Position numbers and translations under genes: made by a program. Below the pieces are notes generated by a model. The model was not told the origin of the DNA, did no database searches, and saw nothing but the letters and a program-made list of their open reading frames with translations. Positions 27,601 through 63,788 of a stretch of DNA of 64,000 bases are shown in pieces. The stretch comes from Fasciola hepatica (taxonomy: Eukaryota; Platyhelminthes; Trematoda; Plagiorchiida; Fasciolidae). The DNA is taken from assembly GCA_948099385.1 (NCBI GenBank), contig CANUEZ040000159.1, positions 6,962,501-7,026,500 of the forward strand, in the 5' to 3' direction. Numbering within the stretch: position 1 is the first letter of the stretch; every line of letters starts with the position of its first letter.

Positions 27601-28400
27601 CATGATATAGCACCCTTCCGTCACTGGCTTCGAACGGTAACAACCCGCTTCCCACACAGCGATCCACTCCTATGATGGATGACGTCTCTGTAGGAGCCTA
27701 AGTACAACGAAGGCATTCCGTTATGAACAACCTACACAGCTTGGTTACTGTTTGCAATTGAGTTGTAGGAGATTAGATTTGTATATGATATGATTCATCA
27801 TGCAGCTTGAACGCTCAACTCACCATTGAAAAGCATGGAAGCACTGTATAGCTGTTTCATCCTTGTTGGGAATCATCAGCAGTGCACATCCATGGAGCAC
27901 CCACGGGGAATCGAACCCGGGGTGAACCATCGTGAAAGTTACACATCTAGGACAAGGCTATCCGGGCTGGCTCTCAACGGTTTGTTGAACATCTACACTA
28001 CATGATATAGCACCCTTCCGTCACTGGCTTCGAACGGTAACAACCCGCTTCCCACACAGCGATCCACTCCTATGATGGATGACTTCTCTGTGGGGGCCTA
28101 AGTACAACGAACGCATTCCGTTATGAACAACCCACACAGCTTGGTTACTGTTTGCAATTGAGTTGTAGGAGATTAGATTTGTATATGATATGATTCATCA
28201 TGCAGCTTGAACGCTCAACTCACCATTGAAAAGCATGGAAGCACTGTACAGCTGTTTCATCCTTGTTGGGAATCATCAGCAGTGCACATCCATGGAGCAC
28301 CCACGGGGACCTGAAACCGGGGTGAACGATTGTGAATCGAACACCATAACCACAAGGCTATCCGAGCTGGCTCTCAACGATTTGGTGACCATCTACACTA

Positions 28401-31400
28401 CATGATATAGCACCCTTCCGTCACTGGCTTTGAACGGTAACAACCCGCTTCCCACACAGCGATCCACTCCTATGATGGATGACTTCTCTGTAGGGGCCTA
28501 AGTACAACGAAGGCATTCCGTTATGAACAACCTACACAGCTTGGTTACTGTTTGCAATTGAGTTGTAGGAGATTAGATTTGTATATGATATGATTCATCA
28601 TGCAGCTTGAACGCTCAACTCACCATTGAAAAGCATGGAAGCACTGTACAGCTGTTTCATCCTTGTTGGGAATCACCACAAGTGAACATACATGGAGACC
28701 CAACGGGGAATCGAAACCGGGGTGAATCATCGTGAGAGAAACACATTGGACACAGGGCTATCCGGGCTGGCTCTCATTGGTTAGTTCAACATCTACACTA
28801 CATGACATAGCACCCTTCCGTCGCTGGCTTTGAACGGTAACAACCCGCTTCCCACACAGCGATCCACTCCTATGATGGATGACTTCTCTGTAGGGGCCTA
28901 AGTACAACGAAGGCATTCCGTTATGAACAACCTACACAGCTTGGTTACTGTTTGCAATTGAGTTGTAGGAGATTAGATTTGTATATGATATGATTCATCA
29001 TGCAGCTTGAACGCTCAACTCACCATTGAAAAGCATGGAAGCACTGTACAGCTGTTTCATCCTTGTTGGGAATCATCAGCAGTGCACATCCATGGAGCAC
29101 CCACGGGGACTCGAACCCGGGTTGAACGATTGTGAATCGAACACCATAACCACAAGGCTATCCGAGCTGGCTCTCAACGGTTTGTTGAACATCTACACTA
29201 CATGATATAGCACCCTTCCGTCACTGGCTTTGAACGGTAACAACCCGCTTCCAACACAGCGATCCACTCCTATGATGGATGACTTCTCTGTAGGGGCCTC
29301 AGTACAACGAACGCATTCCGTTATGAACAACCCACACAGCTTGGTTACTGTTTGCAATGGAGTTGTAGGAGATTAGATTTGTATATGATATGATTCATCA
29401 TGCAGCTTGAACGCTCAACTCACCATTGAAAAGCATGGAAGCACTGTACAGCTGTTTCATCCTTGTTGGGAATCATAAGCACTGCACATCCATGGAGCCC
29501 CAACGGGGACTCGAACCCGGGGTGAACCTCCGTGAGAGAAACACATTAAACACAAGGCTATCCGGGCTGGCTCTCATTGGTTGTTTCAACATCTACACTA
29601 CATGATATAGCATCCTTCCGTCACTGGCTTCGAACGGTAACAACCCGCTTCCCACACAGCGATCCACTCCTATGATGGATGACTTCTCTGTAGGGGCCTA
29701 AGTTCAACGAAGGCATTCCGTTTTGAACAACCTACACAGCATGGTTACTGTTTGCAATTGAGTTGTAGGAGATTAGATTTGTATATGATATGATTCATCA
29801 TGCAGCTTGAACGCTCAACTCACCATTGAAAAGCATGGAAGCACTGTACAGCTGTTTCATCCTTGTTGGGAATCATCAGCAGTGCCCGTCCATGGAGTCC
29901 CCACGGGGACTCGAACCCGGGGTGAACGATTGTGAATCGAACACCTTAACCACAAGGCTATCCGGGCTGGCTCTCATTGGTTAGTTCAACATCTACACTA
30001 CATGATATAGCACCCTTCCGTCGCTGGCTTTGAACGGTAACAACCCGCTTCCCACACAGCGATCCACTCCTATGATGGATGACTTCTCTGTAGGGGCCTA
30101 AGTACAACGAACGCATTCCGTTATGAACAACCTACACAGCTTGGTTACTGTTTGCAATTGAGTTGTAGGAGATTAGATTTGTATATGATATGATTCATCA
30201 TGCAGCTTGAACGCTCAACTCACCATTGAAAAGCATGGAAGCACTGTACAGCTGTTTCATCCTTGTTGGGAATCACCACAAGTGAACATACATGGAGCCC
30301 CAACGGGGAATCGAAACCGGGGTGAATCATCGTGAGAGAAACACATTGAACACAGGGCCATCCGGGCTGGCTCTCATTGGTTAGTTCAACATCTACACTA
30401 CATGACATAGCACCCTTCCGTCGCTGGCTTTGAACGGTAACAACCCGCTTCCCACACAGCGATCCACTCCTATGATGGATGACTTCTCTGTAGGGGCCTA
30501 AGTACAACGAAGGCATTCCGTTATGAACAACCTACACAGCTTGGTTACTGTTTGCAATTGAGTTGTAGGAGATTAGATTTGTATATGATATGATTCATCA
30601 TGCAGCTTGAACGCTCAACTCACCATTGAAAAGCATGGAAGCACTGTACAGCTGTTTCATCCTTGTTGGGAATCATCAGCAGTGCACATCCATGGAGCAC
30701 CCACGGGGACTCGAACCCGGGTTGAACGATTGTGAATCGAACACCATAACCACAAGGCTATCCGAGCTGGCTCTCAACGATTTGGTGACCATCTACACTA
30801 CATGATATAGCACCCTTCCGTCACTGGCTTTGAACGGTAACAACCCGCTTCCCACACAGCGATCCACTCCTATGATGGATGACTTCTCTGTAGGGGCCTG
30901 AGTACAACGAAGGCATTCCGTTATGAACAACCTACACAGCTTGGTCACTGTTTGCAATGGAGTTGTAGGAGATTAGATTTGTATATGATATGATTCATCA
31001 TGCAGCTTGAACGCTCAACTCACCATTGAAAAGCATGGAAGCACTGTACAGCTGTTTCATCCTTGTTGGGAATCATAAGCACTGCACATCCATGGAGCCC
31101 CAACGGGGACTCGAACCCGGGGTGAACTTCCGTGAGAGAAACACATTAAACACAAGGCTATCCGGGCTGGCTCTCATTGGTTACTTCAACATCTACACTA
31201 CATGATATAGCATCCTTCCGTCACTGGCTTCGAACGGTAACAACCCGCTTCCCACACAGCGATCCACTCCTATGATGGATGACTTCTCTGTAGGAGCCTA
31301 AGTACAACGAAGGCATTCCGTTATGAACAACCTACACAGCATGGTTACTGTTTGCAATTGAGTTGTAGGAGATTAGATTTGTATATGATATGATTCATCA

Positions 31401-31600
31401 TGCAGCCTGAACGCTCAACTCACCATTGAAAAGCATGGAAGCACTGTACAGCTGTTTCATCCTTGTTGGGAATCATCAGCAGTGCCCGTCCATGGAGTCC
31501 CCACGGGGACTCGAACCCGGGGTGAACCATCGTGAAAGAAACACATTGAACACAGGGCTATCCGGGCTGGCTCTCATTGGTTAGTTCAACATCTACACTA
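28401..31600. repeat. Four-unit higher-order repeat, 2 x 1600 bp
   Basis: Units 28401/30001 share AATCACCACAAGTGAACATA. Units 28801/30401 share CATGACATAG, TCGCTGG and ACACCATAACC. Units 29201/30801 share CATAAGCACTGC. Units 29601/31201 share GCATGGTTACTG and AGTGCCCGTCCATGGAGTC. The order of four private variants is kept at a 1600-bp step, so this is a block duplication. Confidence 0.92.
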
Positions 31601-34600
31601 CATGACATAGCACCCTTCCGTCACTGGCTTTGAACGGTAACAACCCGCTTCCCACACAGCGATCCACTCCTATGATGGATGACTTCTCTGTAGGGGCCTA
31701 AGTACAACGAACGCATTCCGTTATGAACAACCTACACAGCTTGGTTACTGTTTGCAATTGAGTTGTAGGAGATTAGATTTGTATATGATATGATTCATCA
31801 TGCAGCTTGAACGCTCAACTCACCATTGAAAAGCATGGAAGCACTGTACAGCTGTTTCATCCTTTTTGGGAATCATCAGCAGTGAACATCCATGGAGCAC
31901 ACACAGGGACTCGAACCCGGGGTGAACCATCGTGAAAGAAACACATTAAGCACAAGGCTATCCGGGCTGGCTCTCAACGGTTTGTTGAACATCTACACTA
32001 CATGACATAGCTCCCTTCCGTCACTGGCTTTGAACGGTAACAACCCGCTTCCCACACAGCGATCCACTCCTATGATGGATGACTTCTCTGTAGGGGCCTA
32101 AGTACAACGAAGGCATTCCGTTATGAGCAACCTACACAGCTTGGTTACTGTTTGCAATTGAGTTGTAGGAGATTAGATTTGTATATGATATGATTCATCA
32201 TGCAGCTTGAACGCTCAACTCACCATTGAAAAGCATGGAAGCACTGTACAGCTGTTTCATCCTTGTTGGGAATCATCAGCAGTGCACATACATGGAGTCC
32301 CCACGGGGACTCGAACTCGGGGTGAACCATCGTGAAAGAAACACATTAAGCACAAGGCTATCCGGGCTGGCTCTCAACGGTTTGTTGAACATCTACACTA
32401 CATGACATAGCTCCCTTTCGTCACTGGCTTCGAACGGTAACAACCTGCTTCCCACACAGCGATCCACTCCTATGATGGATGACTTCTCTGTAGGAGCCTC
32501 AGTACAACGAAGGCATTCCGTTATGAACAACCTACACAGCTTGGTTACTGTTTGCAATGGAGTTGTAGGAGATTAGATTTGTATATGATATGATTCATCA
32601 TGCAGCTTGAACGCTCAACTCACCATTGAAAAGCATGGAAGCACTGTACAGCCGTTTCATCCTTGTTGGGAATCATCAGCAGCGCACATCCATGGAGCAC
32701 ACACGGGGACTCGAACCCGGGGTGAACGATTGTGAATCGAACACCATAACCACAAGGCTATCCGAGCTGGCTCTCAACGATTTGGTGACCATCTACACTA
32801 CATGATATAGCACCCTTCCGTCACTGGCTTCGAACGGTAACAACCCGCTTCCCACACAGCGATCCACTCCTATGATGGATGACTTCTCTGTAGGAGCCTA
32901 AGTACAACGAAGGCATTCCGTTATGAACAACCTACACAGCTTGGTTACTGTTTGCAATTGAGTTGTAGGAGATTAGATTTGTATATGATATGATTCATCA
33001 TGCAGCTTGAACGCTCAACTCACCATTGAAAAGCATGGAAGCACTGTACAGCTGTTTCATCCTTGTTGGGGATCATCAGCAGTGCACATCCATGGAGCAC
33101 CCACGGGGACTCGAACCCGGAGTGAAAGATTGTGAATCGAAAAGTTCATACACAAGGCTATCCGGGCTGGCTCTCAACGGTTTGTTGAACATCTACACTA
33201 CATGATATAGCACCCTTCCGTCACTGGCTTCGAACGGTAACAACCCGCTTCCCACACAGCGATCCACTCCTATGATGGATGACGTCTCTGTAGGGGCCTA
33301 AGTACAACGAAGGCATTCCGTTATGAACAACCTACACAGCTTGGTTACTGTTTGCAATTGAGTTGTAGGAGATTAGATTTGTATATGATATGATTCATCA
33401 TGCAGCTTGAACGCTCAACTCACCATTGAAAAGCATGGAAGCACTGTACAGCTGTTTCATCCTTTTTGGGAATCATCAGCAGTGCACATCCATGGAGCTC
33501 CCACGGGGACTCGAACTCGGGGTGAACCTCCGTGAGAGAAACACATTAAACACAAGGCTATCCGGGCTGGCTCTCAACGGTTTGTTCAACATCTACACTA
33601 CATGATATAGCACCCTTCCGTCACTGGCTTTGAACGGTAACAACCCGCTTCCCACACAGCGATCCACTCCTATGATGAACGACTTCTCTGTAGGGGCCTA
33701 AGTACAACGAACGCATTCCGTTATGAACAACCTACACAGCTTGGTTACTGTTTGCAATTGAGTTGTAGGAGATTAGATTTGTATATGATATGATTCATCA
33801 TGCAGCTTGAACGCTCAACTCACCATTGAAAAGCATGGAAGCACTGTACAGCTGTTTCATCCTTGTTGGGAATCATCAGCAGTGCACATCCATGGAGCCC
33901 CCAAGAGGAATGGAACCCGGAGTGAAAGATTGTGAATCGAACAGTTCATACACAAGGCTATCCGGGCTGGCTCTCAACGGTTTGTTCAACATCTACACTA
34001 CATGATATAGCACCCTTCCGTCACTGGCTTCGAACGGTAACAACCCGCTTCCCACACAGCGATCCACTCCTATGATGGATGACGTCTCTGTAGGAGCCTA
34101 AGTACAACGAAGGCATTCCGTTATGAACAACCTACACAGCTTGGTTACTGTTTGCAATTGAGTTGTAGGAGATTAGATTTGTATATGATATGATTCATCA
34201 TGCAGCTTGAACGCTCAACTCACCATTGAAAAGCATGGTAGCACTGTACAGCTGTTTCATCCTTGTTGGGAATCATCAGCAATGCACATCCATGGAGCCC
34301 CCACGGGGATTCGAACCCGGGGTGAACCATCGTGAAAGAAACACCTTAACCACAAGGCTATCCGGGCTGGCTCTCAACGGTTTGTTGAACATCTACACTA
34401 CATGATATAGCACCCTTCCGTCACTGGCTTTGAACGGTAACAACCCGCTTCCCACACAGCGATCCACTCCTATGATGGATGATTTCTCTGTAGGCGCCTA
34501 AGTACAACGAAGGCATTCCGTTATGAACAACCTACACAGCATGGTTACTGTTTGCAATGGAGTTGTAGGAGATTAGATTTGTATATGATATGATTCATCA

Positions 34601-37600
34601 TGCAGCTTGAACGCTCAACTCACCATTGAAAAGCATGGAAGCACTGTACAGCTGTTTCATCCTTGTTGGGAATCATCAGCAATGCACATCCATGGAGCAC
34701 CCACGGGGACTCGAACCCGGGGTGAACGATTGTGAATCGAACACCTTAACCACAAGGCTATCCGGGCTGGCTCTCAACGGTTTGTTGAACATCTACACTA
34801 CATGATATAGCACCCTTCCGTCACTGGCTTCGAACGGTAACAACCCGCTTCCCACACAGCGATCCACTCCTATGATGGATGACTTCTCTGTAGGGGCCTC
34901 AGTACAACGAAGGCATTCCTTTATGAACAACCTACACAGCTCGGTTACTGTTTGCAATTGAGTTGTAGGAGATTAGATTTGTATATGATATGATTCATCA
35001 TGCAGCTTGAACGCTCAACTCACCATTGAAAAGCATGGAAGCACTGTACAGCTGTTTCATCCTTCTTGGGAATCATCAGCAGTGCACATCCATGGAGTCC
35101 CCACGTGAACTCGAACCCGGAGTGAACGATTGTGAATCGAACACATTAACCACAAGGCTATCCGGGCTGGCTCTCAACGGTTAGTTCAACATCTACACTA
35201 CATGATATAGCACCCTTCCGTCACTGGCTTCGAACGGTAACAACCCGCTTCCCACACAGCGATCCACTCCTATGATGGATGACTTCTCTGTAGGAGCCTA
35301 AGTACAACGAAGGCATTCCGTTATGAACAACCTACACAGCTTGGTTACTGTTTGCAATTGAGTTGTAGGAGATTAGATTTGTATATGATATGATTCATCA
35401 TGCAGCTTGAACGCTCAACTCACCATTGAAAAGCATGGAAGCACTGTACAGCTGTTTCATCCTTGTTGGGAATCATCAGCAGTGCACATCCATGGAGCAC
35501 CCACGGGGACTCTAACCCTGGGTGAACGATTGTGAATCGAACACCTTAACCACAAGGCTATCCGGGCTGGCTCTCAACGGTTTGTTCAACATCTACACTA
35601 CATGATATAGCACCCTTCCGTCACTGGCTTCGAACGGTAACAACCCGCTTCCCACACAGCAATCCACTCCTATGATGGATGACTTCTCTGTAGGGGCCTC
35701 AGTACAACGAAGGCATTCCGTTATGAACAACCTACACAGCTTGGTTACTGTTTGCAATTGAGTTGTAGGAGATTAGATTTGTATATGATATGATTCATCA
35801 TGCAGCTTGAACGCTCAACTCACCATTGAAAAGCATGGAAGCACTGTACAGCTGTTTCATCCTTGTTGGGAATCATCAGCAGTGCACATCCATGGAGCAC
35901 CCACGAGGACTCGAACCCGGGGTGAACGATTGTGTATCGAACAACTTAACCACAGGGCTATCCGGGCTGGCTCTCAATGGTTTGTTCAACATCTACACTA
36001 CATGATATAGCACCCTTCCGTCACTGGATTCGAACGGTAACAACCCGCTTCCCACACAGCGATCCACTCCTATGATGGATGACTTCTCTGTAGGGGCATA
36101 AGTACAACGAAGGCATTCCGTTATGAACAACCTACACAGCTTGGTTACTGTTTGCAATTGAGTTGTAGGAGATTAGATTTGTATATGATATGATTCATCA
36201 TGCAGCTTGAACGCTCAACTCACCATTGAAAAGCATGGAAGCACTGTACAGCTGTTTCATCCTTGTTGGGAATCATCAGCAGTGCACATCCATGGAGCAC
36301 CCACGGGGACTCTAACCCTGGGTGAACGACTGTGAATCAAACACCTTAACCACAAGGCTATCCGGGCTGGCTCTCAACGGTTTGTTCAACATCTACACTA
36401 CATGATATAGCACCCTTCCGTCACTGGCTTCGAACGGTAACAACCCGCTTCCCACACAGCAGTCCACTCCTATGATGGATGACTTCTCTGTAGAGCCTCA
36501 GTACAACGAAGGCATTCCGTTATGAACAACCTACACAGCTTGGTTACTGTTTGCAATTGAGTTGTAGTAGATTAGATTTGTATATGATATGATTCATCAT
36601 GCAGCTTGAACGCTCAACTCACCATTGAAAAGCATGGAAGCACTGTACAGCTGTTTCATCCTTGTTGGGAATCATCAGCAGTGCACATCCATGGAGTCCC
36701 CACGTGAACTCGAACCCGGGGTGAACGATTGTGAATCGAACACATTAACCACAAGGCTATCCGGGCTGGCTCTCAACGGTTTGTTCAACATCTACACTAC
36801 ATGATATAGCACCCTTCCGTCACTGGATTCGAACGGTAACAACCCGCTTCCCACACAGCGATCCACTCCTATGATGGATGACTTCTCTGTAGGGGCCTAA
36901 GTACAACGAAGGCATTCCCTTATGAACAACCTACACAGCTTGGTTACTGTTTGCAATTGAGTTGTAGGAGATTAGATTTGTATATGATATGATTCATCAT
37001 GCAGCTTGAACGCTCAACTCACCATTGAAAAGCATGGAAGCACTGTACAGCTGTTTCATCCTTGTTGGGAATCATCAGCAGTGCACATCCATGGAGCACC
37101 CACGGGGACTCGAACCCGGGGTGAACAATTGTGAATCGAACACCTTAACCACAAGGCTATCCGGGCTGGCTCTCAACGGTTTGTTCAACATCTACACTAC
37201 ATGATATAGCACCCTTCCGTCACTGGCTTCGAACGGTAACAACCCGCTTCCCACACAGCAATCCACTGCTATGATGGATGACTTCTCTGTAGGGGCGTAA
37301 GTACAACGAACGCATTCCGTTATGAACAACCCACACAGCTTGGTTACTGTTTGCAATTGAGTTGTAGGAGATTAGATTTGTATATGATATGATTCATCAT
37401 GCAGCTTGAACGCTCAATTCACCATTGAAAAGCATGGAAGCACTGTACAGCTGTTTCATCCTTGTTGGGAATCATCAGCAGTGCACATCCATGGAGCACC
37501 CACGGGGACTCGAACACGGGGTGAACGATTGTGAATCGGACACCTTAACCACAAGGCTAACCGGGCCGGCTCTCAACGGTTTGTTCAACATCTACACTAC

Positions 37601-39427
37601 ATGATATAGCACCCTTCCGTCACTGGCTTCGAACGGTAACAACCCGCTTCCCACACAGCGATCCACTCCTATGATGGATGACTTCTCTGTAGGGGCCTCA
37701 GTACAACGAAGGCATTCCGTTATGAACAACCTACACAGCTTGGTTACTGTTTGCAATGGAGTTGTAGGAGATTAGATTTGTATATGATATGATTCATCAT
37801 GCAGCTTGAACGCTCAACTCACCATTGAAAAGCATGGAAGCACTGTACAGCTGTTTCATCCTTGTTGGGAATCATCAGCAGTGCACATCCATGGAGCACC
37901 CACGGGGACTCGAACCCGGGGTGAACGATTGTGAATCGGACACCTTAACCACAAGGCTATCCGGGCCGGCTCTCAACGGTTTGTTCAACATCTACACTAC
38001 ATGATATAGCACCCTTCCGTCACTGGCTTCGAACGGTAACAACCCGCTTCCCACACAGCGATCCACTCCTATGATGGATGACTTCTCTGTAGGGGCCTAA
38101 GTACAACGAAGGCATTCCGTTATGAACAACCCACACAGCTTGGTTACTGTTTGCAATTGAGTTGTAGGAGATTAGATTTGTATATGATATGATTCATCAT
38201 GCAGCTTGAACGCTCAACTCACCATTGAAAAGCATGGAAGCACTGTACAGCTGTTTCATCCTTGTTGGGAATCATCAGCAATGCACATCCACCGAGCCCC
38301 CACAGGGACTCCAACACGGGGTGAACGATTGTGAATCGAACACCTTAACCACAAGGCTATCCGGGCTGGCTCTCAACGGTTTGTTCAACATCTACACTAC
38401 ATGATATAGCACCCTTCCGTCACTGGCTTTGAACGGTAACAACCCGCTTCCCATACAGCGATCCACTCCTATGATGGATGACTTCTCTGTAGGGGCCTAA
38501 GTACAACGAAGGCATTCCGTTATGAACAACCTACACAGCTTGGTTACTGTTTGCAATTGAGTTGTAGGAGATTAGATTTGTATATGATATGATTCATCAT
38601 GCAGCTTGAACGCTGAACTCACCATTGAAAAGCATGGAAGCACTGTACAGCTGTTTCATCCTTGTTGGGAATCATCAGCAGTGCACATCCATGGAGCTCC
38701 CACGGGGACTCGAACTCGGGGTGAACCTCCGTGAGAGAAACACATACAACACAAGGCTATCCGGGCTGGCTCTCAACGGTTTCTTGAACATCTACACTAC
38801 ATGATATAGCCTCCCTCCGTCACTGGCTTCGAACGGTAACAACCCGCTTCCCACACAGCGATCCACTCCTATGATGGATGACCTCTCTGTAGGGGCCTGA
38901 GTACAACGAAGGCATTCCGTTATGAACAACCTACACAGCTTGGTTACTGTTTGCAATGGAGTTGTAGGAGATTAGATTTGTATATGATATGATTCATCAT
39001 GCAGCTTGAACGCTCAACTCACCATTGAAAAGCATGGAAGCACTGTACAGCTGTTTCATCCTTGTTGGGAATCATCAGCAGTGCACATCCATGGAGCACA
39101 CACGGGGACTCGAACCCGGGGTGAACCATCGTGAAAGAAACACATTAAGCACAAGGCTATCCGGGCTGGCTCTCAATGGTTTGTTCAACATCTACACTAC
39201 ATGATATAGCACCCTTCCGTCACTGGCTTTGAACGGTAACAACCCGCTTCCCACACAGCGATCCACTCCTATGATGGATGACTTCTCTGTAGGGGCCTAA
39301 GTACAACGAACGCATTCCGTTATGAACAACCTACACAGCTTGGTTACTGTTTGCAATTGAGTTGTAGGAGATTAGATTTGTATATGATATGATTCATCAT
39401 GCAGCTTGAACGCTCAACTCACCATTG

Positions 39428-39431
39428 AAAA
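39428..39431 (-). terminator. T4 Pol III termination signal after the ribozyme
   Basis: Minus-strand TTTT begins one base past the last base of stem I, so tRNA-like element, hammerhead and T4 form a closed cassette of about 140 nt. Four Ts is the minimal Pol III signal and is leaky in many eukaryotes, so read-through into the 400-nt unit is plausible. The run is shortened at about 8229 and 22,230 and broken at about 57,427. Confidence 0.5.
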
Positions 39432-39432
39432 G

Positions 39433-39493
39433 CATGGAAGCACTGTACAGCTGTTTCATCCTTGTTGGGAATCATCAGCAGTGCACATCCATG
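39433..39493 (-). ncRNA. Type I hammerhead ribozyme (one per unit)
   Basis: Read on the minus strand, outer stem I CAUGGA pairs with UCCAUG at the 3' end. An asymmetric internal loop (UGU opposite U) follows, then inner stem I GCACUG pairs with CAGUGC. The catalytic core CUGAUGA comes next. Stem II is UCC/GGA closing a CAACAA loop, with a U-U apposition at positions 10.1/11.1. The second core strand is GAA. Stem III is the palindrome ACAGCUGU, giving AC/GU with an AGCU loop in cis. Cleavage is predicted after A17 of the GUA triplet, between minus-strand 39446 and 39445. The type I layout and the UCCCAA...GGA stem-loop II closely resemble what I recall of the schistosome satellite hammerhead; no search was run. 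The stem I internal loop is where natural hammerheads dock with loop II. All conserved core bases are present. The U-U at 10.1/11.1, normally G-C, may lower activity. Confidence 0.85.
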
Positions 39494-39505
39494 GAGCCCC
39501 CACGG

Positions 39506-39516
39506 GGACTCGAACC
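39506..39516 (-). promoter_or_regulatory. Pol III B box of the tRNA-like element
   Basis: Minus-strand GGTTCGAGTCC is an exact match to the B-box consensus GGTTCGANTCC. It lies 32 bases downstream of the A box, which is normal tRNA-gene spacing. It is kept in many units. Others change one base, for example GGTTCGATTCC or GGTTCGAATTC. Confidence 0.75.
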
Positions 39517-39548
39517 CGGGGTGAACGATTGTGAATCGAACACCTTAA

Positions 39549-39559
39549 CCACAAGGCTA
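39549..39559 (-). promoter_or_regulatory. Pol III A box of the tRNA-like element
   Basis: Minus-strand TAGCCTTGTGG fits the A-box pattern TRGYNNANNNG except that the usual A14 is T. It lies at tRNA positions 8-19. Class B units lose the final G of the GTGG motif (GTGC or GTGT), which should weaken the box further. Confidence 0.6.
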
Positions 39560-40799
39560 TCCGGGCTGGCTCTCAACGGTTTGTTCAACATCTACACTAC
39601 ATGATATAGCACCCTTCCGTCACTGGCTTCGAACGGTAACAACCCGCTTCCCACACAGCGATCCACTCCTATGATGGATGACTTCTCTGTAGGGGCCTAA
39701 GTACAACGAAGGCATTCCGTTATGAACAACCCACACAGCTTGGTTACTGTTTGCAATTGAGTTGTAGGAGATTAGATTTGTATATGATATGATTCATCAT
39801 GCAGCTTGAACGCTCAACTCACCATTGAAAAGCATGGAAGCACTGTACAGCTGTTTCATCCTTCTTGGGAATCATCAGCAGTGCACATCCATGGAGCTCC
39901 CACGGGGACTCGAACTCGGGGTGAACCTCCGTGAGAGAAACACATACAACACAAGGCTATCCGGGCTGGCTCTCAACGGTTTCTTGAACATCTACACTAC
40001 ATGATATAGCCTCCCTCCGTCACTGGCTTCGAACGGTAACAACCCGCTTCCCACACAGCGATCCACTCCTATGATGGATGACTTCTCTGTAGGGGCCTAA
40101 GTACAACGAACGCATTCCGTTATGAACAACCTACACAGCTTGGTTACTGTTTGCAATTGAGTTGTAGGAGATTAGATTTGTATATGATATGATTCATCAT
40201 GCAGCTTGAACGCTCAACTCACCATTGAAAAGCATGGAAGCACTGTACAGCTGTTTCATCCTTGTTGGGAATCATCAGCAGTGCACATCCATGGAGCACA
40301 CACGGGGACTCGACCTCGGGGTGAACCTCCGTGAGAGAAACACATTAAACACAAGGCTATCCGGGCTGGCTCTCAACGGTTTGTTCAACATCTACACTAC
40401 ATGATATAACCTCCCTCCGTCAATGGCTTCGAACGGTAACAACCCGCTTCCCACACAGCGATCCACTCGTATGATGAATGACCTCTCTGTAGGCGCCTAA
40501 GTACAACGAAGGCATTCCGTTATGAACAACCTACACAGCTTGGTTACTGTTTGCAATTGAGTTGTAGGAGATTAGATTTGTATATGATATGATTCATCAT
40601 GCAGCTTGAACGCTCAACTCACCATTGAAAAGCATGGAAGCACTGTACAGCTGTTTCATCCTTGTTGGGAATCATCAGCAGTGCACATCCATGGAGCACC
40701 CACGGGAAATCGAACCCGGGGTGAACGATTGTGAATCGAACACCTTAACCACAAGGCTATCCGGGCTGGCTCTCAACGGTTTGTTCAACATCTACACTA

Positions 40800-43700
40800 C
40801 ATGATATAGCACCCTTCCGTCACTGGCTTCGAACGGTAACAACCCGCTTCCCACACAGCGATCCACTCCTATGATGGATGACTTCTCTGTAGGGGCCTAA
40901 GTACAACGAACGCATTCCGTTATGAACAACCTACACAGCTTGGTTACTGTTTGCAATTGAGTTGTAGGAGATTACATTTGTATATGATATGATTCATCAT
41001 GCAGCTTGAACGCTCAACTCACCATTGAAAAGCATGGAAGCACTGTACAGCTGTTTCATCCTTGTTGGGAATCATCAGCAGTGCACATCCATGGTGCACC
41101 CACGGGGACTCGAACCCGCGGTGAACGATTGTGAATCGGACACCTTAACCACAAGGCTATCCGGGCCGGCTCTCAACGTTTTGTTGAACATCTACACTAC
41201 ATGATATAGCACCCTTCCGTCACTGGCTTCGAACGGTAACAACCCGCTTCCCACACAGCGATCCACTCCTATGATGGATGACTTCTCTGTAGGGGCCTAA
41301 GTACAACGAAGGCATTCCGTTATGAACAACCCACACAGCTTGGTTACTGTTTGCAATTGAGTTGTAGGAGATTAGATTTGTATATGATATGATTCATCAT
41401 GCAGCTTGAACGCTCAACTCACCATTGAAAAGCATGGAAGCACTGTACAGCTGTTTCATCCTTGTTGGGAATCATCAGCAGTGCACATCCATGGAGCACA
41501 CACGGGGACTCGAACTCGGGGTGAACCTCCGTGAGAGAAACACATTCAACACAAGCCTATCCGGGCTGGCTCTCAACGGTTTCTTGAACATCTACACTAC
41601 ATGATATAGCCTCCCTCCGTCACTGGCTTCGAACGGTAACAACCCGCTTCCCACACAGCGATCCACTCGTATGATGAATGACCTCTCTGTAGGCGCCTAA
41701 GTACAACGAACGCATTCCGTTATGAACAACCTACACAGCTTGGTTACTGTTTGCAATGGAGTTGTAGGAGATTAGATTTGTATATGATATGATTCATCAT
41801 GCAGCTTGAACGCTCAACTCACCATTGAAAAGCATGGAAGCACTGTACAGCTGTTTCATCCTTGTTGGGAATCATCAGCAGTGCACATCCATGGAGCACC
41901 CACGGGGACTCGAACCCGGGGTGAACCATCGTGAAAGAAACACATTAAGCACAAAGCTATCCGGGCTGGCTCTCAACGGTTTGTTCAACATCTATACTAC
42001 ATGATATAGCACCCATCCGTCACTGGCTTTGAACGGTAACAACCCGCTTCCCATACAGCGATCCACTCCTATGATGGATGACTTCTCTGTAGGGGCCTAA
42101 GTACAACGAAGGCATTCCGTTATGAACAACCCACACAGCTTGGTTACTGTTTGCAATTGAGTTGTAGGAGATTAGATTTGTATATGATATGATTCATCAT
42201 GCAGCTTGAACGCTCAACTCACCATTGAAAAGCATGGAAGCACTGTACAGCTGTTTCATCCTTGTTGGGAATCATCAGCAGTGCACATCCATGGAGCACA
42301 CACGGGGACTCGACCTCGGGGTGAACCTCCGTGAGAGAAACACCTTAACCACAAGGCTATCCGGGCTAGCTCTCAACGTTTAGTTCAACATCTACACTAC
42401 ATGATATAGCACCCTTCCGTCACTGGCTTCGAACGGTAACAACCCGCTTCCCACACAGCGATCCACTCGTATGATGAATGACCTCTCTGTAGGCGCCTAA
42501 GTACAACGAAGGCATTCCGTTATGAACAACCTACACAGCTTGGTTACTGTTTGCAATTGAGTTGTAGGAGATTAGATTTGTATATGATATGATTCATCAT
42601 GCAGCTTGAACGCTCAACTCACCATTGAAAAGCATGGAAGCACTGTACAGCTGTTTCATCCTTGTTGGGAATCATCAGCAGTGCACATCCATGGAGCACC
42701 CACGGGGACTCGAACCCGGGGTGAACCATCGTGAAAGAAACACATTAAGCACAAGGCTATCCGGGCTGGCTCTCAACGGTTTGTTCAACATCTACACTAC
42801 ATGATATAACCTCCCTCCGTCACTGGCTTCGAACGGTAACAACCCGCTTCCCACACAGCGATCCACTCCTATGATGGATGACTTCTCTGTAGGGGCCTGA
42901 GTACAACGAAGGCATTCCGTTATGAACAACCTACACAGCTTGGTTACTGTTTGCAATTGAGTTGTAGGAGATTAGATTTGTATATGATATGATTCATCAT
43001 GCAGCTTGAACGCTCAACTCACCATTGAAAAGCATGGAAGCACTGTACAGCTGTTTCATCCTTGTTGGGAATCATCAGCAGTGCACATCCATGGAGCACC
43101 CACGAGGACTCGAAACCGGGGTGAACGATTGTGAATCGAACACCTTAACCACAAGGCTATCCGGGCTGGCTCTCAACGGTTTCTTGAACATCTACACTAC
43201 ATGATATAACCTCCCTCCGTCACTGGCTTCGAACGGTAACAACCCGCTTCCCACACAGCGATCCACTCCTATGATGGATGACTTCTCTGTAGGGGCCTGA
43301 GTACAACGAAGGCATTCCGTTATGAACAACCTACACAGCTTGGTTACTGTTTGCAATTGAGTTGTAGGAGATTAGATTTGTATATGATATGATTCATCAT
43401 GCAGCTTGAACGCTCAACTCACCATTGAAAAGCATGGAAGCACTGTACAGCTGTTTCATCCTTGTTGGGAATCATCAGCAGTGCACATCCATGGAGCACC
43501 CACGAGGACTCGAAACCGGGGTGAACGATTGTGAATCGAACACCTTAACCACAAGGCTATCCGGGCTGGCTCTCAACGGTTTCTTGAACATCTACACTAC
43601 ATGATATAGCACCCTTCCGTCACTGGCTTCGAACGGTAACAACCTGCTTCCCACACAGCGATCCACTCCTATGATGGATGACTTCTCTGTAGGGGCCTGA

Positions 43701-44398
43701 GTACAACGAAGGCATTCCGTTATGAACAACCTACACAGCTTGGTTACTGTTTGCAATTGAGTTGTAGGAGATTACATTTGTATATGATATGATTCATCAT
43801 GCAGCTTGAACGCTCAACTCACCATTGAAAAGCATGGAAGCACTGTACAGCTGTTTCATCCTTGTTGGGAATCATCAGCAGTGCACATCCATGGAGCACC
43901 CACGGGCCTCGAACCCGGGGTGAACGATTGTGAATCGAACACCTTAACCACAAGGCTATCCGGGCTGGCTCTCAACGGTTTGTTCAACATCTACACTACA
44001 TGATATAGCACCCTTCCGTCACTGGCTTCGAACGGTAACAACCCGCTTCCCACACAGCGATCCACTCCTATGATGGATGAATTCTCTGTAGGCGCCCAAG
44101 TACAACGAAGGCATTCCGTTATGAACAACCTACACAGCTTGGTTACTGTTTGTAATTGAGTTGTAGGAGATTAGATTTGTATATGATATGATTCATCATG
44201 CAGCTTGAACGCTCAACTCACCATTGAAAAGCATGGAAGCACTGTACAGCTATTTCATCCTTGTTGGGAATCATCAGCAGTGCACATCCATGGAGCACCA
44301 ACGGGGACTCGAACCCGGGGTGAACGATTGTGAATCGAACACCTTAACCACAAGGCTATCCGGGCTGGCTCTCAACGGTTTGTTCAACATCTACACTA
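40800..44398. repeat. Higher-order repeat block 1 (9 units, about 3.6 kb)
   Basis: Ordered unit markers: TGGTGCACCC with CCGGGCCGGC (40800); CATTCAACACAAGCC (41200); CTCCCTCC with TCGTATGATGAATGACC and CAAAGC (41600); CCCATCC with CCATACAGCG and CGACCTCGG (42000); TCGTATGATGAATG (42400); CGAGGACTCGAAACC with TTCTTGAAC (42800 and again 43200); CACGGGCCTCG (43600); GGCGCCCAAG with TGTAATTG and AGCTATTTC (43999). The doubled unit 42800/43200 is the only length difference from block 2. Confidence 0.93.
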
Positions 44399-47300
44399 CA
44401 TGATATAGCACCCTTCCGTCACTGGCTTCGAACGGTAACAACCCGCTTCCCACACAGCGATCCACTCCTATGATGGATGACTTCTCTGTAGGGGCCTAAG
44501 TACAACGAACGCATTCCGTTATGAACAACCTACACAGCTTGGTTACTGTTTGCAATTGAGTTGTAGGAGATTAGATTTGTATATGATATGATTCATCATG
44601 CAGCTTGAACGCTCAACTCACCATTGAAAAGCATGGAAGCACTGTACAGCTGTTTCATCCTTGTTGGGAATCATCAGCAGTGCACATCCATGGTGCACCC
44701 ACGGGGACTCGAACCCGCGGTGAACGATTGTGAATCAAACACCTTAACCACAAGGCTATCCGGGCCGGCTCTCAACGTTTTGTTGAACATCTACACTACA
44801 TGATATAGCACCCTTCCGTCACTGGCTTCGAACGGTAACAACCCGCTTCCCACACAGCGATCCACTCCTATGATGGATGACTTCTCTGTAGGGGCCTAAG
44901 TACAACGAAGGCATTCCGTTATGAACAACCCACACAGCTTGGTTACTGTTTGCAATTGAGTTGTAGGAGATTAGAATTGTATATGATATGATTCATCATG
45001 CAGCTTGAACGCTCAACTCACCATTGAAAAGCATGGAAGCACTGTACAGCTGTTTCATCCTTGTTGGGAATCATCAGCAGTGCACATCCATGGAGCACAC
45101 ACGGGGACTCGAACTCGGGGTGAACCTCCGTGAGAGAAACACATTCAACACAAGCCTATCCGGGCTGGCTCTCAACGGTTTCTTGAACATCTACACTACA
45201 TGATATAGCCTCCCTCCGTCACTGGCTTCGAACGGTAACAACCCGCTTCCCACACAGCGATCCACTCGTATGATGAATGACCTCTCTGTAGGCGCCTAAG
45301 TACAACGAACGCATTCCGTTATGAACAACCTACACAGCTTGGTTACTGTTTGCAATGGAGTTGTAGGAGATTAGATTTGTATATGATATGATTCATCATG
45401 CAGCTTGAACGCTCAACTCACCATTGAAAAGCATGGAAGCACTGTACAGCTGTTTCATCCTTGTTGGGAATCATCAGCAGTGCACATCCATGGAGCACCC
45501 ACGGGGACTCGAACCCGGGGTGAACCATCGTGAAAGAAACACATTAAGCACAAAGCTATCCGGGCTGGCTCTCAACGGTTTGTTCAACATCTATACTACA
45601 TGATATAGCACCCATCCGTCACTGGCTTTGAACGGTAACAACCCGCTTCCCATACAGCGATCCACTCCTATGATGGATGACTTCTCTGTAGGGGCCTAAG
45701 TACAACGAAGGCATTCCGTTATGAACAACCCACACAGCTTGGTTACTGTTTGCAATTGAGTTGTAGGAGATTAGATTTGTATATGATATGATTCATCATG
45801 CAGCTTGAACGCTCAACTCACCATTGAAAAGCATGGAAGCACTGTACAGCTGTTTCATCCTTGTTGGGAATCATCAGCAGTGCACATCCATGGAGCACAC
45901 ACGGGGACTCGACCTCGGGGTGAACCTCCGTGAGAGAAACACCTTAACCACAAGGCTATCCGGGCTAGCTCTCAACGTTTAGTTCAACATCTACACTACA
46001 TGATATAGCACCCTTCCGTCACTGGCTTCGAACGGTAACAACCTGCTTCCCACACAGCGATCCACTCGTATGATGAATGACCTCTCTGTAGGCGCCTAAG
46101 TACAACGAAGGCATTCCGTTATGAACAACCTACACAGCTTGGTTACTGTTTGCAATTGAGTTGTAGGAGATTAGATTTGTATATGATATGATTCATCATG
46201 CAGCTTGAACGCTCAACTCACCATTGAAAAGCATGGAAGCACTGTACAGCTGTTTCATCCTTGTTGGGAATCATCAGCAGTGCACATCCATGGAGCACCC
46301 ACGGGGACTCGAACCCGGGGTGAACCATCGTGAAAGAAACACATTAAGCACAAGGCTATCCGGGCTGGCTCTCAACGGTTTGTTCAACATCTACACTACA
46401 TGATATAACCTCCCTCCGTCACTGGCTTCGAACGGTAACAACCCGCTTCCCACACAGCGATCCACTCCTATGATGGATGACTTCTCTGTAGGGGCCTGAG
46501 TACAACGAAGGCATTCCGTTATGAACAACCTACACAGCTTGGTTACTGTTTGCAATTGAGTTGTAGGAGATTAGATTTGTATATGATATGATTCATCATG
46601 CAGCTTGAACGCTCAACTCACCATTGAAAAGCATGGAAGCACTGTACAGCTGTTTCATCCTTGTTGGGAATCATCAGCAGTGCACATCCATGGAGCACCC
46701 ACGAGGACTCGAAACCGGGGTGAACGATTGTGAATCGAACACCTTAACCACAAGGCTATCCGGGCTGGCTCTCAACGGTTTCTTGAACATCTACACTACA
46801 TGATATAGCACCCTTCCGTCACTGGCTTCGAACGGTAACAACCCGCTTCCCACACAGCGATCCACTCCTATGATGGATGACTTCTCTGTAGGGGCCTGAG
46901 TACAACGAAGGCATTCCGTTATGAACAACCTACACAGCTTGGTTACTGTTTGCAATTGAGTTGTAGGAGATTACATTTGTATATGATATGATTCATCATG
47001 CAGCTTGAACGCTCAACTCACCATTGAAAAGCATGGAAGCACTGTACAGCTGTTTCATCCTTGTTGGGAATCATCAGCAGTGCACATCCATGGAGCACCC
47101 ACGGGCCTCGAACCCGGGGTGAACGATTGTGAATCGAACACCTTAACCACAAGGCTATCCGGGCTGGCTCTCAACGGTTTGTTCAACATCTACACTACAT
47201 GATATAGCACCCTTCCGTCACTGGCTTCGAACGGTAACAACCCGCTTCCCACACAGCGATCCACTCCTATGATGGATGAATTCTCTGTAGGCGCCCAAGT

Positions 47301-47597
47301 ACAACGAAGGCATTCCGTTATGAACAACCTACACAGCTTGGTTACTGTTTGTAATTGAGTTGTAGGAGATTAGATTTGTATATGATATGATTCATCATGC
47401 AGCTTGAACGCTCAACTCACCATTGAAAAGCATGGAAGCACTGTACAGCTATTTCATCCTTGTTGGGAATCATCAGCAGTGCACATCCATGGAGCACCAA
47501 CGGGGACTCGAACCCGGGGTGAACGATTGTGAATCGAACACCTTAACCACAAGGCTATCCGGGCTGGCTCTCAACGGTTTGTTCAACATCTACACCA
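44399..47597. repeat. Higher-order repeat block 2 (8 units, about 3.2 kb)
   Basis: It repeats the ordered markers of block 1 at unit starts 44399, 44799, 45199, 45599, 45999, 46399, 46799 and 47198, with only scattered substitutions. Examples are ATCGGAC to ATCAAAC in the first unit and TAGATTT to TAGAATT in the second. It lacks the duplicate of the sixth unit. Confidence 0.93.
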
Positions 47598-50500
47598 CAT
47601 GATATAGCACCCTTCCGTCACTGGCTTTCAACGGTAACAACCCGCTTCCCACACAGCGATCCACTCCTATGATGGATGACCTCTCTGTAGGGGCCTAAGT
47701 ACAACGAAGGCATTCCGTTATGAACAACCTACACAGCTTGGTTACTGTTTGCAATTGAGTTGTAGGAGATTAGATTTGTATATGATATGATTCATCATGC
47801 AGCTTGAACGCTCAACTCACCATTGAAAAGCATGGAAGCACTGTACAGCTGTTTCATCCTTGTTGGGAATCATCAGCAGTGCACATCCATGGAGCACCCA
47901 CGAGGACTCGAACCCGGGGTGAACGATTGTGAATCGAACACCTTAACCACAAGGCTATCCGAACTGGCTCTCAACGGTTTGTTGAACATCTACACTACAT
48001 GATATAGCACCCTCCCGTCACTGGCTTCGAACGGTAACAACCCGCTTCCCACACAGCGATCCACTCCTATGATGGATGACTTCTCTGTAGGGGCCTAAGT
48101 TCAACGAAGGCATTCCGTTATGAACAACCCACACAGCTTGGTTACTGTTTGCAATTGAGTTGTAGGAGATTAGATTTGTATATGATATGATTCATCATGC
48201 AGCTTGAACGCTCAACTCACCATTGAAAAGCATGGAAGCACTGTACTGCTGTTTCACTCTTGTTGAGAATCATCAGCAGTGCACATCCATGGAGCACCAA
48301 CGGGGACTCGAACCCTGGGTGAACAATTGTGAATCGAACACCTTAACCACAAGGCTATCCGGGCTGGCTCTCAATGGTTTGTTCAACATCTACACTACAT
48401 GATATAGCACCCTTCCGTCACTGGCTTCGAACGGTAACAACCCGCTTCCCACAAGGCGATCCACCCCTATGATGGTTGACTTCTCCGTGTGTGTCTAAGT
48501 ACAACGAAGGCATTCCGTTATGAACAACCTACACAGCTTGGTTACTGTTTGCAATTGAGTTGTAGGAGATTAGATTTGTATATGATATGATTCATCATGC
48601 AGCTTGAACGCTCAACTCACCATTGAAAAGCATGGAAGCACTGTATAGCTGTTTCATCCTTGTTGGGAATCATCAGCAGTGCACATCCATGGAGCACCCA
48701 CGGGGACTCGAACCCGGGGTGAACGATTGTGAATCGAACACCCTAACCACAAGGCTATCCGGGCTGGCTCTCAACGGTTTGTTGAACATCTACACTACAT
48801 GATATAGCACCCTTCCGTCACTGGCTTCGAACGGTAACAACCCGCTTCCCACAAGGCGATCCACTGCTATGATGGATGACTTCTCTGTAGGTGCCTAAGT
48901 ACAACGAAGGCATTCCGTTATGAACAACCTACACAGCTTGGTTACTGTTTGCAATTGAGTTGTAGGAGATTAGATTTGTATATGATATGATTCATCATGC
49001 AGCTTGAACGCTCAACTCACCATTGAAAAGCATGGAAGCACTGTACAGCTGTTTCATCCTTGTTGGGAATCATCAGCAGTGCACATCCATGGAGCACCCA
49101 CGGGGACTCGAACCCGGGGTGAACGATTGTGAATCGAACACCCTAACCACAAGGCTATCCGGGCTGGCTCTCAACGGTTTGTTGAACATCTACACTACAT
49201 GATATAGCACCCTTCCGTCACTGGCTTCGAACGGTAACAACCCGCTTCCCACAAGGCGATCCACTGCTATGATGGATGACTTCTCTGTAGGTGCCTAAGT
49301 ACAACGAAGGCATTCCGTTATGAACAACCTACACAGCTTGGTTACTGTTTGCAATTGAGTTGTAGGAGATTAGATTTGTATATGATATGATTCATCATGC
49401 AGCTTGAACGCTCAACTCACCATTGAAAAGCATGGAAGCACTGTACAGCTGTTTCATCCTTGTTGGGAATCATCAGCAGTGCACATCCATGGAGCACCCA
49501 CGAGGACTCGAAACCGGGGTGAACGATTGTGAATCGAACACCTTAACCACAAGGCTATCCGGGCTGGCTCTCAACGGTTTGTTGAACATCTACACTACAT
49601 GATATAGCACCCTTCCGTCACTGGCTTCGAACGGTAACAACCTGCTTCCCACACAGCGATCCACTCCTATGATGGATGACTTCTCTGTAGGGGCCTGAGT
49701 ACAACGAAGGCATTCCGTTATGAACAACCTACACAGCTTGGTTACTGTTTGCAATTGAGTTGTAGGAGATTACATTTGTATATGATATGATTCATCATGC
49801 AGCTTGAACGCTCAACTCACCATTGAAAAGCATGGAAGCACTGTACAGCTGTTTCATCCTTGTTGGGAATCATCAGCAGTGCACATCCATGGAGTCCCCA
49901 CGTGAACTCGAACCCGGGGTGAACGATTGTGAATCGAACACCTTAACCACAAGGCTATCCGGGCTGGCTCTCAACGGTTTGTTCAACATCTACACTACAT
50001 GATATAGCACCCTTCCGTCACTGGCTTCGAACGGTAACAACCCGCTTCCCACACAGCGATCCACTCCTATGATGGATGAATTCTCTGTAGGCGCCCAAGT
50101 ACAACGAAGGCATTCCGTTATGAACAACCTACACAGCTTGGTTACTGTTTGTAATTGAGTTGTAGGAGATTAGATTTGTATATGATATGATTCATCATGC
50201 AGCTTGAACGCTCAACTCACCATTGAAAAGCATGGAAGCACTGTACAGCTATTTCATCCTTGTTGGGAATCATCAGCAGTGCACATCCATGGAGCACCAA
50301 CGGGGACTCGAACCCGGGGTGAACGATTGTGAATCGAACACCTTAACCACAAGGCTATCCGGGCTGGCTCTCAACGGTTTGTTCAACATCTACACCACAT
50401 GATATAGCACCCTTCCGTCACTGGCTTTCAACGGTAACAACCCGCTTCCCACACAGCGATCCACTCCTATGATGGATGACCTCTCTGTAGGGGCCTAAGT

Positions 50501-63194: not shown

Positions 63195-63480
63195 CATGAT
63201 ATAGCACCCTTCCGTCACTGGCGTCGAACGGTAACAACCCGCTTCCCACACAGCGATCCACTCCTATGATGGATGACTTCTCTGTAGGGGCCTCAGTACA
63301 ACGAACGCATTCCGTTATGTACAACCTACACAGCTTGGTTACTGTTTGCAATGGAGTTGTAGGAGATTAGATTTGTATATGATATGATTCATCATGCAGC
63401 TTGAACGCTCATCTCACCATTGAAAATCGTGGAATTCCTTAACATCTGTGATATTCTTGTTGGGAATCATCAGCAGAGCA
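63195..63480. repeat. Truncated, decayed terminal unit of the direct array
   Basis: The unit follows the consensus to about 63,425, then degenerates. The bases for the 3' half of the hammerhead (about 63,428-63,455) are heavily changed, while TTGTTGGGAATCATCAGCAG survives. Homology ends at about 63,480, before the tRNA-like element, which is therefore missing. This is typical of the edge of a satellite array. Confidence 0.85.
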
Positions 63481-63509
63481 AATTATTTTGTGCGTCATTT
63501 GTGCATTAA
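63481..63509. other. AT-rich spacer at the inversion junction
   Basis: About 29 bp that do not match the unit convincingly. TTTGTGC occurs twice, 11 bp apart (63487 and 63498). It may be diverged repeat rather than foreign DNA; the boundaries are good to a few bases. Confidence 0.6.
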
Positions 63510-63649
63510 TTGTACCTAGGCCCCTACAGTGAAGTCGCTCATCATAGCATTCCATCGCTCTTTGGGAAGCGGGATGTTACCATTCAATGCCAGTGAAGGA
63601 AGGATGCTATATCATGTAGTGTAGATGTTGAACAAACCGTTGAGAGCCA

Positions 63650-63724
63650 GCCCGGATAGCCTTGTGGTTAAGGTGTTCGATTCACAATCGTTCACCCCGG
63701 GTTCGAGTCCCCGTGGGTGCTCCA
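63650..63724 (+). ncRNA. tRNA-like element, class A, inverted copy
   Basis: It matches the reference class A element over its full 75 nt except for GGTGC at the acceptor end. G1 is 63650, U8 63657, U33 63682, the triplet CAC 63683-63685, the T loop 63702-63708 and CCA 63722-63724. The A box is 63657-63667 and the exact B box 63700-63710. Acceptor pairing is 4 of 7. Confidence 0.85.
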
Positions 63725-63783: not shown

Positions 63784-63784
63784 C

Positions 63785-63788
63785 TTTT
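63785..63788 (+). terminator. T4 Pol III termination signal, inverted copy
   Basis: TTTT sits one base beyond the hammerhead, reproducing the cassette geometry of the direct units. Confidence 0.5.

What the first reader, a model, noticed from the sequence alone, without database searches (positions are those of the whole stretch)
39433..39493. Every satellite unit encodes a hammerhead ribozyme on the minus strand
Seen: CUGAUGA and GAA core strands, perfect 6-bp outer and 6-bp inner halves of stem I separated by an internal loop, stem II UCC/GGA, and a GUA cleavage triplet, at the same offset (233-293) in almost all of the roughly 160 units. Known: type I hammerheads occur in schistosome, newt and cave-cricket satellites and in retrozymes. 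Inferred: array transcripts self-cleave into 400-nt monomers with 2',3'-cyclic phosphate and 5'-OH ends, which could also be ligated into circles.
Basis: partly seen in the sequence, partly recalled or inferred. Interest (0 to 1): 0.95.

Follow-up and report, generated by a model that had tools for sequence, protein, structure and literature searches.

The report
tRNA-headed satellite with hammerhead ribozyme
A 240,000-base block of about 600 near-identical 400-base repeats, in a genome that is probably a flatworm's, carries a tRNA-like segment and a hammerhead ribozyme motif in nearly every repeat, so its RNA would likely cut itself into single repeats, much like the known Sm-alpha elements of blood flukes.

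Summary
The motif is real: the nine core bases are intact in 146 of 160 window units, and 98 of 160 are perfect in core, triplet and stems. A matching descriptor hit once in 16 million shuffled strand-bases. (1) Each ribozyme directly follows a tRNA-Val(CAC)-like head, and the consensus unit's only TTTT starts at the second base past the ribozyme; head plus ribozyme is the layout of schistosome Sm-alpha. (2) Stem II begins with a U-U mismatch in 592 of 599 units, as in axolotl HHR_Amex2; no unit searched (window plus 135.5 kb) reaches Rfam's hammerhead cut-off. (3) The array spans 240 kb with one polarity switch. A palindromic stem III lets two copies co-fold as a double hammerhead (412 of 595 adjacent pairs), suggesting dimer-dependent cleavage. 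Cleavage, Pol III transcription and circles are untested. Against activity: 0 of 159 single motifs fold as a hammerhead in silico, a two-unit transcript is not predicted to form the double hammerhead, and array variation shows no clear selection. Verdict: new member of the Sm-alpha kind.

The parts
1..63483 (-). Left arm of the satellite as far as it lies in the window: 400-bp units, ribozyme on the minus strand
   Evidence: boundary
39167..39566 (-). Example unit (unit positions 1-400 counted from the tRNA-like head)
39495..39566 (-). tRNA-Val(CAC)-like head, unit 1-72
   Evidence: Rfam tRNA 33.1 bits; ARAGORN tRNA-Val cac
39549..39559 (-). A-box-like string UAGCCUUGUGG, unit 8-18 (one mismatch to the consensus as I recall it)
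   Evidence: sequence; exact string in 534 of 599 units
39506..39516 (-). B box GGTTCGAGTCC, unit 51-61
   Evidence: GWTCRANNC (consensus recalled) at this place in 426 of 599 units
39433..39493 (-). Type I hammerhead motif, unit 74-134
39472..39478 (-). CUGAUGA core strand
39454..39457 (-). GAAA core strand (G12-A13-A14-A15.1)
39458..39471 (-). Stem-loop II: U10.1-U11.1 mismatch, UCC/GGA, loop CAACAA
   Evidence: U-U in 592 of 599 units, no standard pair in any
39447..39454 (-). Stem III, palindrome ACAGCUGU: 2 bp plus tetraloop, or 8 bp between two copies
   Evidence: intact in 557 of 599 units; co-folding
39445..39446 (-). Predicted cut, between A (39446) and C (39445)
   Evidence: position from the motif; not tested
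39428..39431 (-). TTTT, the only one in the consensus unit; candidate Pol III terminator
   Evidence: 157 of 160 units in the window; 574 of 599 in the array
39167..39427 (-). Unit body (unit 140-400), no recognised feature; the least variable 60 bases of the unit lie at its start
63484..63501 (.). 18-bp spacer at the single polarity switch of the array
63502..64000 (+). Start of the right arm (plus strand), which runs on to about 166 kb
63650..63721 (+). tRNA-like head of the first inverted unit
   Evidence: 27.5 bits, below the cut-off of 29
63723..63783 (+). Hammerhead motif of the first inverted unit (Rfam match 63732-63776)

Best explanation
Each 400-bp unit is likely a non-autonomous, Sm-alpha-like element in which a tRNA-Val-like head is predicted to serve as an internal RNA polymerase III promoter for a type I hammerhead ribozyme placed directly behind it, and the element has been amplified into a 240-kb satellite. 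Shown by sequence: the order head (1-72), ribozyme (74-134), TTTT (136-139), body (140-400); the fixed U-U at 10.1/11.1; the palindromic stem III; the two arms of opposite polarity. Inferred: Pol III starts at the head and stops, or fails to stop, at TTTT, giving RNAs of about 139 + 400n nt. With n = 0 the ribozyme can only trim the last 18 nt. [quoted passage not shown] Because stems II and III are weak, cleavage probably needs two copies joined through ACAGCUGU, as reported for newt and axolotl repeats. Sealing into circles by a cellular RtcB-type ligase would be a further, untested step.
For: tRNA heads: 26 Rfam hits at or above cut-off in the window, 60 in 135.5 kb of the right arm; 10 ARAGORN calls, all Val-cac. 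Hammerhead: (E = 1.2e-4), core intact in 569 of 599 units, chance rate 1 in 16 million. TTTT almost only at unit 136/137. The co-folding minimum of two consensus motifs is exactly the double hammerhead, -45.1 against 2 x -19.6 kcal/mol, and so it is for 412 of 595 adjacent pairs. The ribozyme strand as a 400-nt circle folds more stably than 60 shuffles (z = -3.3); the opposite strand does not (z = -0.5). Literature: axolotl HHR_Amex2 has the same U-U mismatch and a 2-bp stem III with tetraloop, cuts weakly as monomer and better as dimer, and the axolotl repeats give circles (PMC7229834 section 15); a natural U10.1-U11.1 was described, and U-U supports more cleavage than any other mispair there (PMC3088659 passages); Sm-alpha is tRNA-Gln-derived (PMC2770079 passages), and schistosome hammerhead sequences carry boxes A and B (PMC2576457 passages).
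Against: No hammerhead match reaches Rfam's cut-off in the window or in 135.5 kb of the right arm. The minimum-energy fold of the single motif is not a hammerhead in any of 159 units: the consensus fold keeps most of stems I and II but pairs the core CUG with CAG of stem III. Rfam's own consensus fails the same way. In a 539-nt two-unit transcript the inter-copy pairs have probability 0.00. Dimer control: with the four stem-III loop bases in 20 orders, 18 still pair stem I between strands, and the natural order's gain (-5.9 kcal/mol) is beaten by 4 of the 19 others; so strand pairing does not hang on this palindrome alone. The ribozyme is not more conserved than the body: rank 124 of 267 windows, core sites p about 0.09; stem changes break pairs 209 times on one side and 3 on both, against 106 and 2 kept. 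The tRNA head is the most variable part (4.9% against 1.4% and 2.0%), the B box is intact in only 426 of 599 units, and the A box has U where tRNAs keep A14 (recalled). No transcription data.
Confidence: 0.55

Rival explanations
1. Decayed passenger: the ribozyme and the tRNA head are fossils of an old mobile element, and the array grew and is homogenised purely by unequal exchange at DNA level, without RNA function.
For: No excess conservation of ribozyme or core and almost no compensatory changes in its stems; the head is the most variable part; U-U fixed; below the Rfam cut-off where scanned; the two arms differ at only 2 consensus positions, so homogenisation is strong.
Against: Core intact in 569 of 599 units and TTTT in 574; U-U ribozymes of similar layout cut in axolotl; the ribozyme strand is unusually stable as a circle (z = -3.3).
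Confidence: 0.27
2. Ordinary metazoan non-LTR retrozyme: transcription is Pol II or read-through, the tRNA part is only a relic, and the cut monomers circularise and are copied back by a Penelope-like element.
For: Tandem type I hammerhead repeats of 150-450 bp are the typical form of metazoan retrozymes (PMC7229834 passages and section 15); the unit is 400 bp.
Against: A 2016 analysis found no PBS or PPT motif in metazoan hammerhead repeats and a full tRNA-Gln only in schistosome ones (PMC4918200 passages); the head-ribozyme-TTTT order fits Pol III. Penelope elements of this genome could not be searched (tool busy).
Confidence: 0.16
3. Chance resemblance to a hammerhead.
For: Sub-threshold Rfam score.
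Against: Descriptor rate 1 per 16 million strand-bases, E = 1.2e-4, and adjacency to a tRNA-like head as in Sm-alpha.
Confidence: 0.02

Closest known systems
Sm-alpha SINE-like elements of Schistosoma (also W36.2_W001)
   Same: tRNA-derived head, boxes A and B, type I hammerhead, a few hundred bp, highly repeated
   Different: The S. mansoni head is tRNA-Gln; here Val-CAC. Here the 10.1/11.1 pair is U-U, the unit is 400 bp against 335 bp for W36.2_W001, and the array is 240 kb with one polarity switch. Dispersed copies and sequence homology to Sm-alpha could not be tested.
Axolotl HHR_Amex2 retrozyme (350-bp repeats)
   Same: U-U at the base of stem II, 2-bp stem III with tetraloop, tandem repeats
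   Different: No tRNA head is mentioned in the section read; different animal group; I did not have its sequence.
Newt satellite and viroid double hammerheads
   Same: Short stem III whose loop can pair between copies (passages)
   Different: Stem III of the amphibian satellite motifs is described as weaker (one pair); no tRNA head is described in the passages read.
pDo500 satellite of Dolichopoda cave crickets
   Same: Satellite with hammerhead; 146 of 198 copies fold as active hammerheads in that study (passages)
   Different: There the hammerhead is significantly more conserved than the rest of the repeat; here it is not.

Membership tests
Type I hammerhead ribozyme (Rfam RF00163) | Conserved core CUGANGA...GAA and UH before the cut | tested here: met
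   core 569 of 599, triplet 595 of 599
Type I hammerhead ribozyme (Rfam RF00163) | Three stems with stem I open-ended | tested here: met
   stem II 587, stem III 584, inner stem I 512 of 599; stem III is only 2 bp within one copy
Type I hammerhead ribozyme (Rfam RF00163) | Standard pair 10.1-11.1 at the base of stem II | tested here: not met
   UU 592, UC 6, CU 1 of 599. Natural U-U hammerheads are described, so this lowers rather than excludes membership
Type I hammerhead ribozyme (Rfam RF00163) | Score at or above Rfam's gathering threshold | tested here: not met
   best 33.0 of 34 bits in the window; none in 135.5 kb of the right arm; the rest of the array not scanned
Type I hammerhead ribozyme (Rfam RF00163) | Self-cleavage | not testable with these tools
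   needs in vitro transcription
Type I hammerhead ribozyme (Rfam RF00163) | Loop I-loop II tertiary contact | not tested
   an internal loop UGU/U six bp from the core and loop CAACAA are present; their contact was not modelled
Sm-alpha-like tRNA-headed hammerhead element | tRNA-derived head on the same strand as the ribozyme | tested here: met
Sm-alpha-like tRNA-headed hammerhead element | Pol III boxes A and B | tested here: inconclusive
   A-like string in 534, B box in 426 of 599 units; A box has one mismatch to the recalled consensus; transcription unknown
Sm-alpha-like tRNA-headed hammerhead element | Dispersed SINE-like copies with target-site duplications | not tested
   the one answered genome search scored 1 of 1010 first-look candidates and returned only this array
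Sm-alpha-like tRNA-headed hammerhead element | Homology to Schistosoma Sm-alpha outside tRNA and core | not tested
   I had no Sm-alpha sequence; the 1998 paper is not held
Metazoan non-LTR retrozyme | Tandem 150-450-bp repeats with type I hammerhead | tested here: met
   400-bp units, 599 copies spanning the motif
Metazoan non-LTR retrozyme | Circular monomer RNA in tissues | not testable with these tools
   needs RNA

The most novel reading that the evidence does not exclude
A self-limiting Pol III cassette: the tRNA-like head drives the ribozyme, and the only terminator of the unit starts at the second base beyond it. A single-unit transcript can therefore only shed its own U-tail, while each read-through adds one 400-nt unit and a second ribozyme. 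The fixed U-U and the palindromic stem III would then make cutting depend on two copies, so that only read-through RNAs yield tRNA-tagged monomers and circles.
Probability: 0.15. Interest if true: 0.72.

Novelty: new member of a known kind. Interest (0 to 1): 0.5.

Why it matters
It puts a tRNA-headed hammerhead element in a 1.5-Gb genome that is probably a flatworm's, with a different tRNA (Val) and a weakened ribozyme fixed over about 600 copies. That makes the old question of whether satellite hammerheads act as dimers directly testable on one natural array with a predicted dimer interface, and would tie SINE-type Pol III transcription to retrozyme-type RNA processing. A complete 240-kb array with one polarity switch is also good material for studying how such satellites grow.

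Tried and rejected
Viral contigs, prokaryote genome contigs and phage records: no match to the ribozyme patterns or the unit, as expected for an animal satellite. Chance resemblance: rejected. Selection on the ribozyme from array variation: not supported in 157 window units nor in 563 full units of the array. Double hammerhead in a two-unit transcript: not predicted; in that call the index set for the alternative pairing was off by one and its 0.00 is not used. The B-box count (146 of 160) is inflated, because the expression also matches GTTCGATTC in the anticodon arm; one search replaces it. The A-box expression returned 0 because the head has T at the fixed position; exact strings were counted instead. 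tRNA covariation: only the anticodon stem exceeds every shuffle, and that comes from one patch shared by 36 of 157 units, so it is not evidence of selection. Divergence counts for the first, last and inverted units include missing or foreign bases and are not used. Papers: the eight searches listed no title or abstract start reporting a tRNA-Val-headed hammerhead satellite; I read listings, passages and two named sections, not whole papers. PMC10702118 was seen as abstract and outline only; PMC10886601, PMC5993326 and PMC3653858 as passages that added nothing decisive. The 1998 Sm-alpha paper was not held. The species was not identified.

Full report
What is there. The window is a 400-bp tandem array (Tandem Repeats Finder 1-63480, 158.7 copies). 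I aligned 160 units, 159 on the minus strand and one inverted at the right edge. Counted along the minus strand from the tRNA-like start, the consensus unit reads: tRNA-like head 1-72, hammerhead motif 74-134, TTTT 136-139, body 140-400.

The ribozyme motif. Of 160 units the nine core bases are intact in 146, the U-H triplet in 159, stem II in 154, stem III in 156, inner stem I in 136 and outer stem I in 123; 98 have everything. A descriptor for this layout hits once in 16 million shuffled strand-bases; it was written after seeing the sequence. Rfam's type I model matches at 28.8 bits, E = 1.2e-4 in 1.3 kb, but under its gathering score of 34. In the 64-kb search the same typical unit has E = 0.0057 and the best unit 33.0 bits. 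No hammerhead passes the cut-off in the window or in 135.5 kb of the right arm; the rest of the array was not scanned. The alignment marks the U-U at the base of stem II as the one non-standard pair.

The head. Rfam finds 26 tRNAs above cut-off in the window and 60 in 135.5 kb of the right arm; ARAGORN, all Val-CAC. The B box at unit 51-61 fits GWTCRANNC in 426 of 599 units, and the A-box-like string is intact in 534. Both box consensus forms are recalled; the A box deviates at one position. The head is the most variable part of the unit: 4.9% against 1.4% for the ribozyme and 2.0% for the body. The consensus unit's only TTTT starts at the second base after the ribozyme and is kept in 574 of 599 units. 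One TTTT per 400 bp is what shuffles give (699 of 2000 shuffles have exactly one), so only its position is suggestive.

The whole array. The genome search answered once and placed the window at C159:6962501-7026500 of a 1.5-Gb, 656-contig assembly. With stretches, the array runs without interruption from 6952114 to 7192186. The left arm is 73.9 kb on the minus strand and the right arm 166 kb on the plus strand, with a single switch and an 18-bp spacer at window 63484-63501. Transcription from the heads would diverge from the switch. Of 599 units that span the motif the core is intact in 569; 534 look functional (core, triplet, stems II and III, at least 5 of 6 inner stem I pairs); 421 are perfect. 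The 10.1/11.1 pair is U-U in 592, U-C in 6 and C-U in 1, never a standard pair. The two arms' consensus sequences differ at 2 of 400 positions.

Does it work? The single motif does not fold as a hammerhead at minimum energy in any of 159 units: the fold favoured by the consensus keeps most of stems I and II but pairs the core CUG with CAG of stem III. The Rfam consensus shows the same gap of 5 kcal/mol, so that test has little weight. Two consensus copies co-fold exactly into a double hammerhead through the palindrome ACAGCUGU (-45.1 against 2 x -19.6 kcal/mol); this holds for 111 of 158 adjacent pairs in the window and 412 of 595 in the array. A control weakens the inference: with the four loop bases in 20 orders, 18 still pair stem I between the strands, and 4 of the 19 other orders gain more than the natural one. 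Also against it, a 539-nt transcript with two units is predicted to keep each motif in its local alternative fold, with inter-copy pairing at 0.00. Experiments on a like case favour activity: a repeat with axolotl HHR_Amex2, which has the same U-U and a 2-bp stem III with tetraloop, cut 22% in an hour as monomer and much more efficiently as dimer, and axolotl tissues hold circular forms (PMC7229834, section 15 read). A U10.1-U11.1 start of stem II was also described in a survey, with a note that U-U supports more cleavage than any other mispair there (PMC3088659, passages).

Selection. Variation inside the array does not show constraint on the ribozyme. In 563 full units its window ranks 124 of 267 and core sites are lower than random sites with p about 0.09. 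Stem changes break pairs 209 times on one side and 3 on both, against 106 kept on one side and 2 on both. In Dolichopoda the hammerhead is significantly more conserved than the rest of its satellite (PMC2837043, passages). The intact state here may reflect homogenisation alone.

Host. A reverse-transcriptase piece from the same contig is closest to a Fasciola hepatica protein, the only named one of 6 hits (58%). A transposase-like piece near the array has Paragonimus westermani as its best named hit (41%), followed among named hits by molluscs and fishes at 33-39% and others. So the host is probably a flatworm, likely a trematode. Mobile-element proteins are weak taxonomic evidence and the species was not identified.

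Known relatives. Sm-alpha of Schistosoma mansoni is a SINE-like element derived from tRNA-Gln (PMC2770079 passages) with a type I hammerhead (PMC8490949 passages and section 11); schistosome hammerhead sequences carry Pol III boxes A and B (PMC2576457 passages). A 2016 study saw no PBS or PPT motif in metazoan hammerhead repeats except a full tRNA-Gln in schistosomes (PMC4918200 passages). The present unit works, by anatomy, like Sm-alpha. Whether it descends from it could not be tested, because I had no Sm-alpha sequence.

Judgement. I file it as a new member of a known kind: a tRNA-Val-headed, Sm-alpha-like hammerhead satellite with a weakened, likely dimer-dependent ribozyme. Anatomy is shown; cleavage, Pol III transcription and circles are inferred.

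Noticed in passing
unit positions 13-51, in clusters of units between about 24000 and 59600: In 36 of 157 window units the D arm and anticodon arm of the tRNA-like head carry a different block that keeps the CAC anticodon and re-pairs the anticodon stem (30-40 GC to CG, 31-39 AT to TA in about half of them); the rest of the unit's consensus is unchanged. It looks like a conversion patch from another tRNA-Val-like template. By a stricter test 34 of 184 left-arm units and 0 of 415 right-arm units carry it.
   Followed up: partly
63420-63620: Single polarity switch of a 240-kb array: the left arm ends inside a unit at position 79, within the ribozyme, and the right arm begins at unit position 253, with 18 bp between.
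   Followed up: partly
unit positions about 143-202 (e.g. 39365-39424): The least variable 60 bases of the unit lie just downstream of the ribozyme and TTTT, not in the ribozyme (0.5% against about 2% for the body; 131-190 in the window alone). Reason unknown.
   Followed up: no
about 24400-31200: A run of units in which patched and unpatched heads alternate one by one, which looks like a two-unit higher-order repeat.
   Followed up: no
unit positions 26-34: A second B-box-like string GTTCGATTC in the anticodon arm of the head (seen when the regex count proved inflated).
   Followed up: no
L015 (C159:6950001-6952000), within 2 kb left of the array: Adjacent reading frames, 254 and 217 aa, split by a stop; the first resembles transposase-like proteins, best named relative Paragonimus westermani.
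   Followed up: partly
L009 (C159:6500001-6502000): A reading frame that resembles the SH3 part of a discs-large protein (resemblance recalled, not searched).
   Followed up: no
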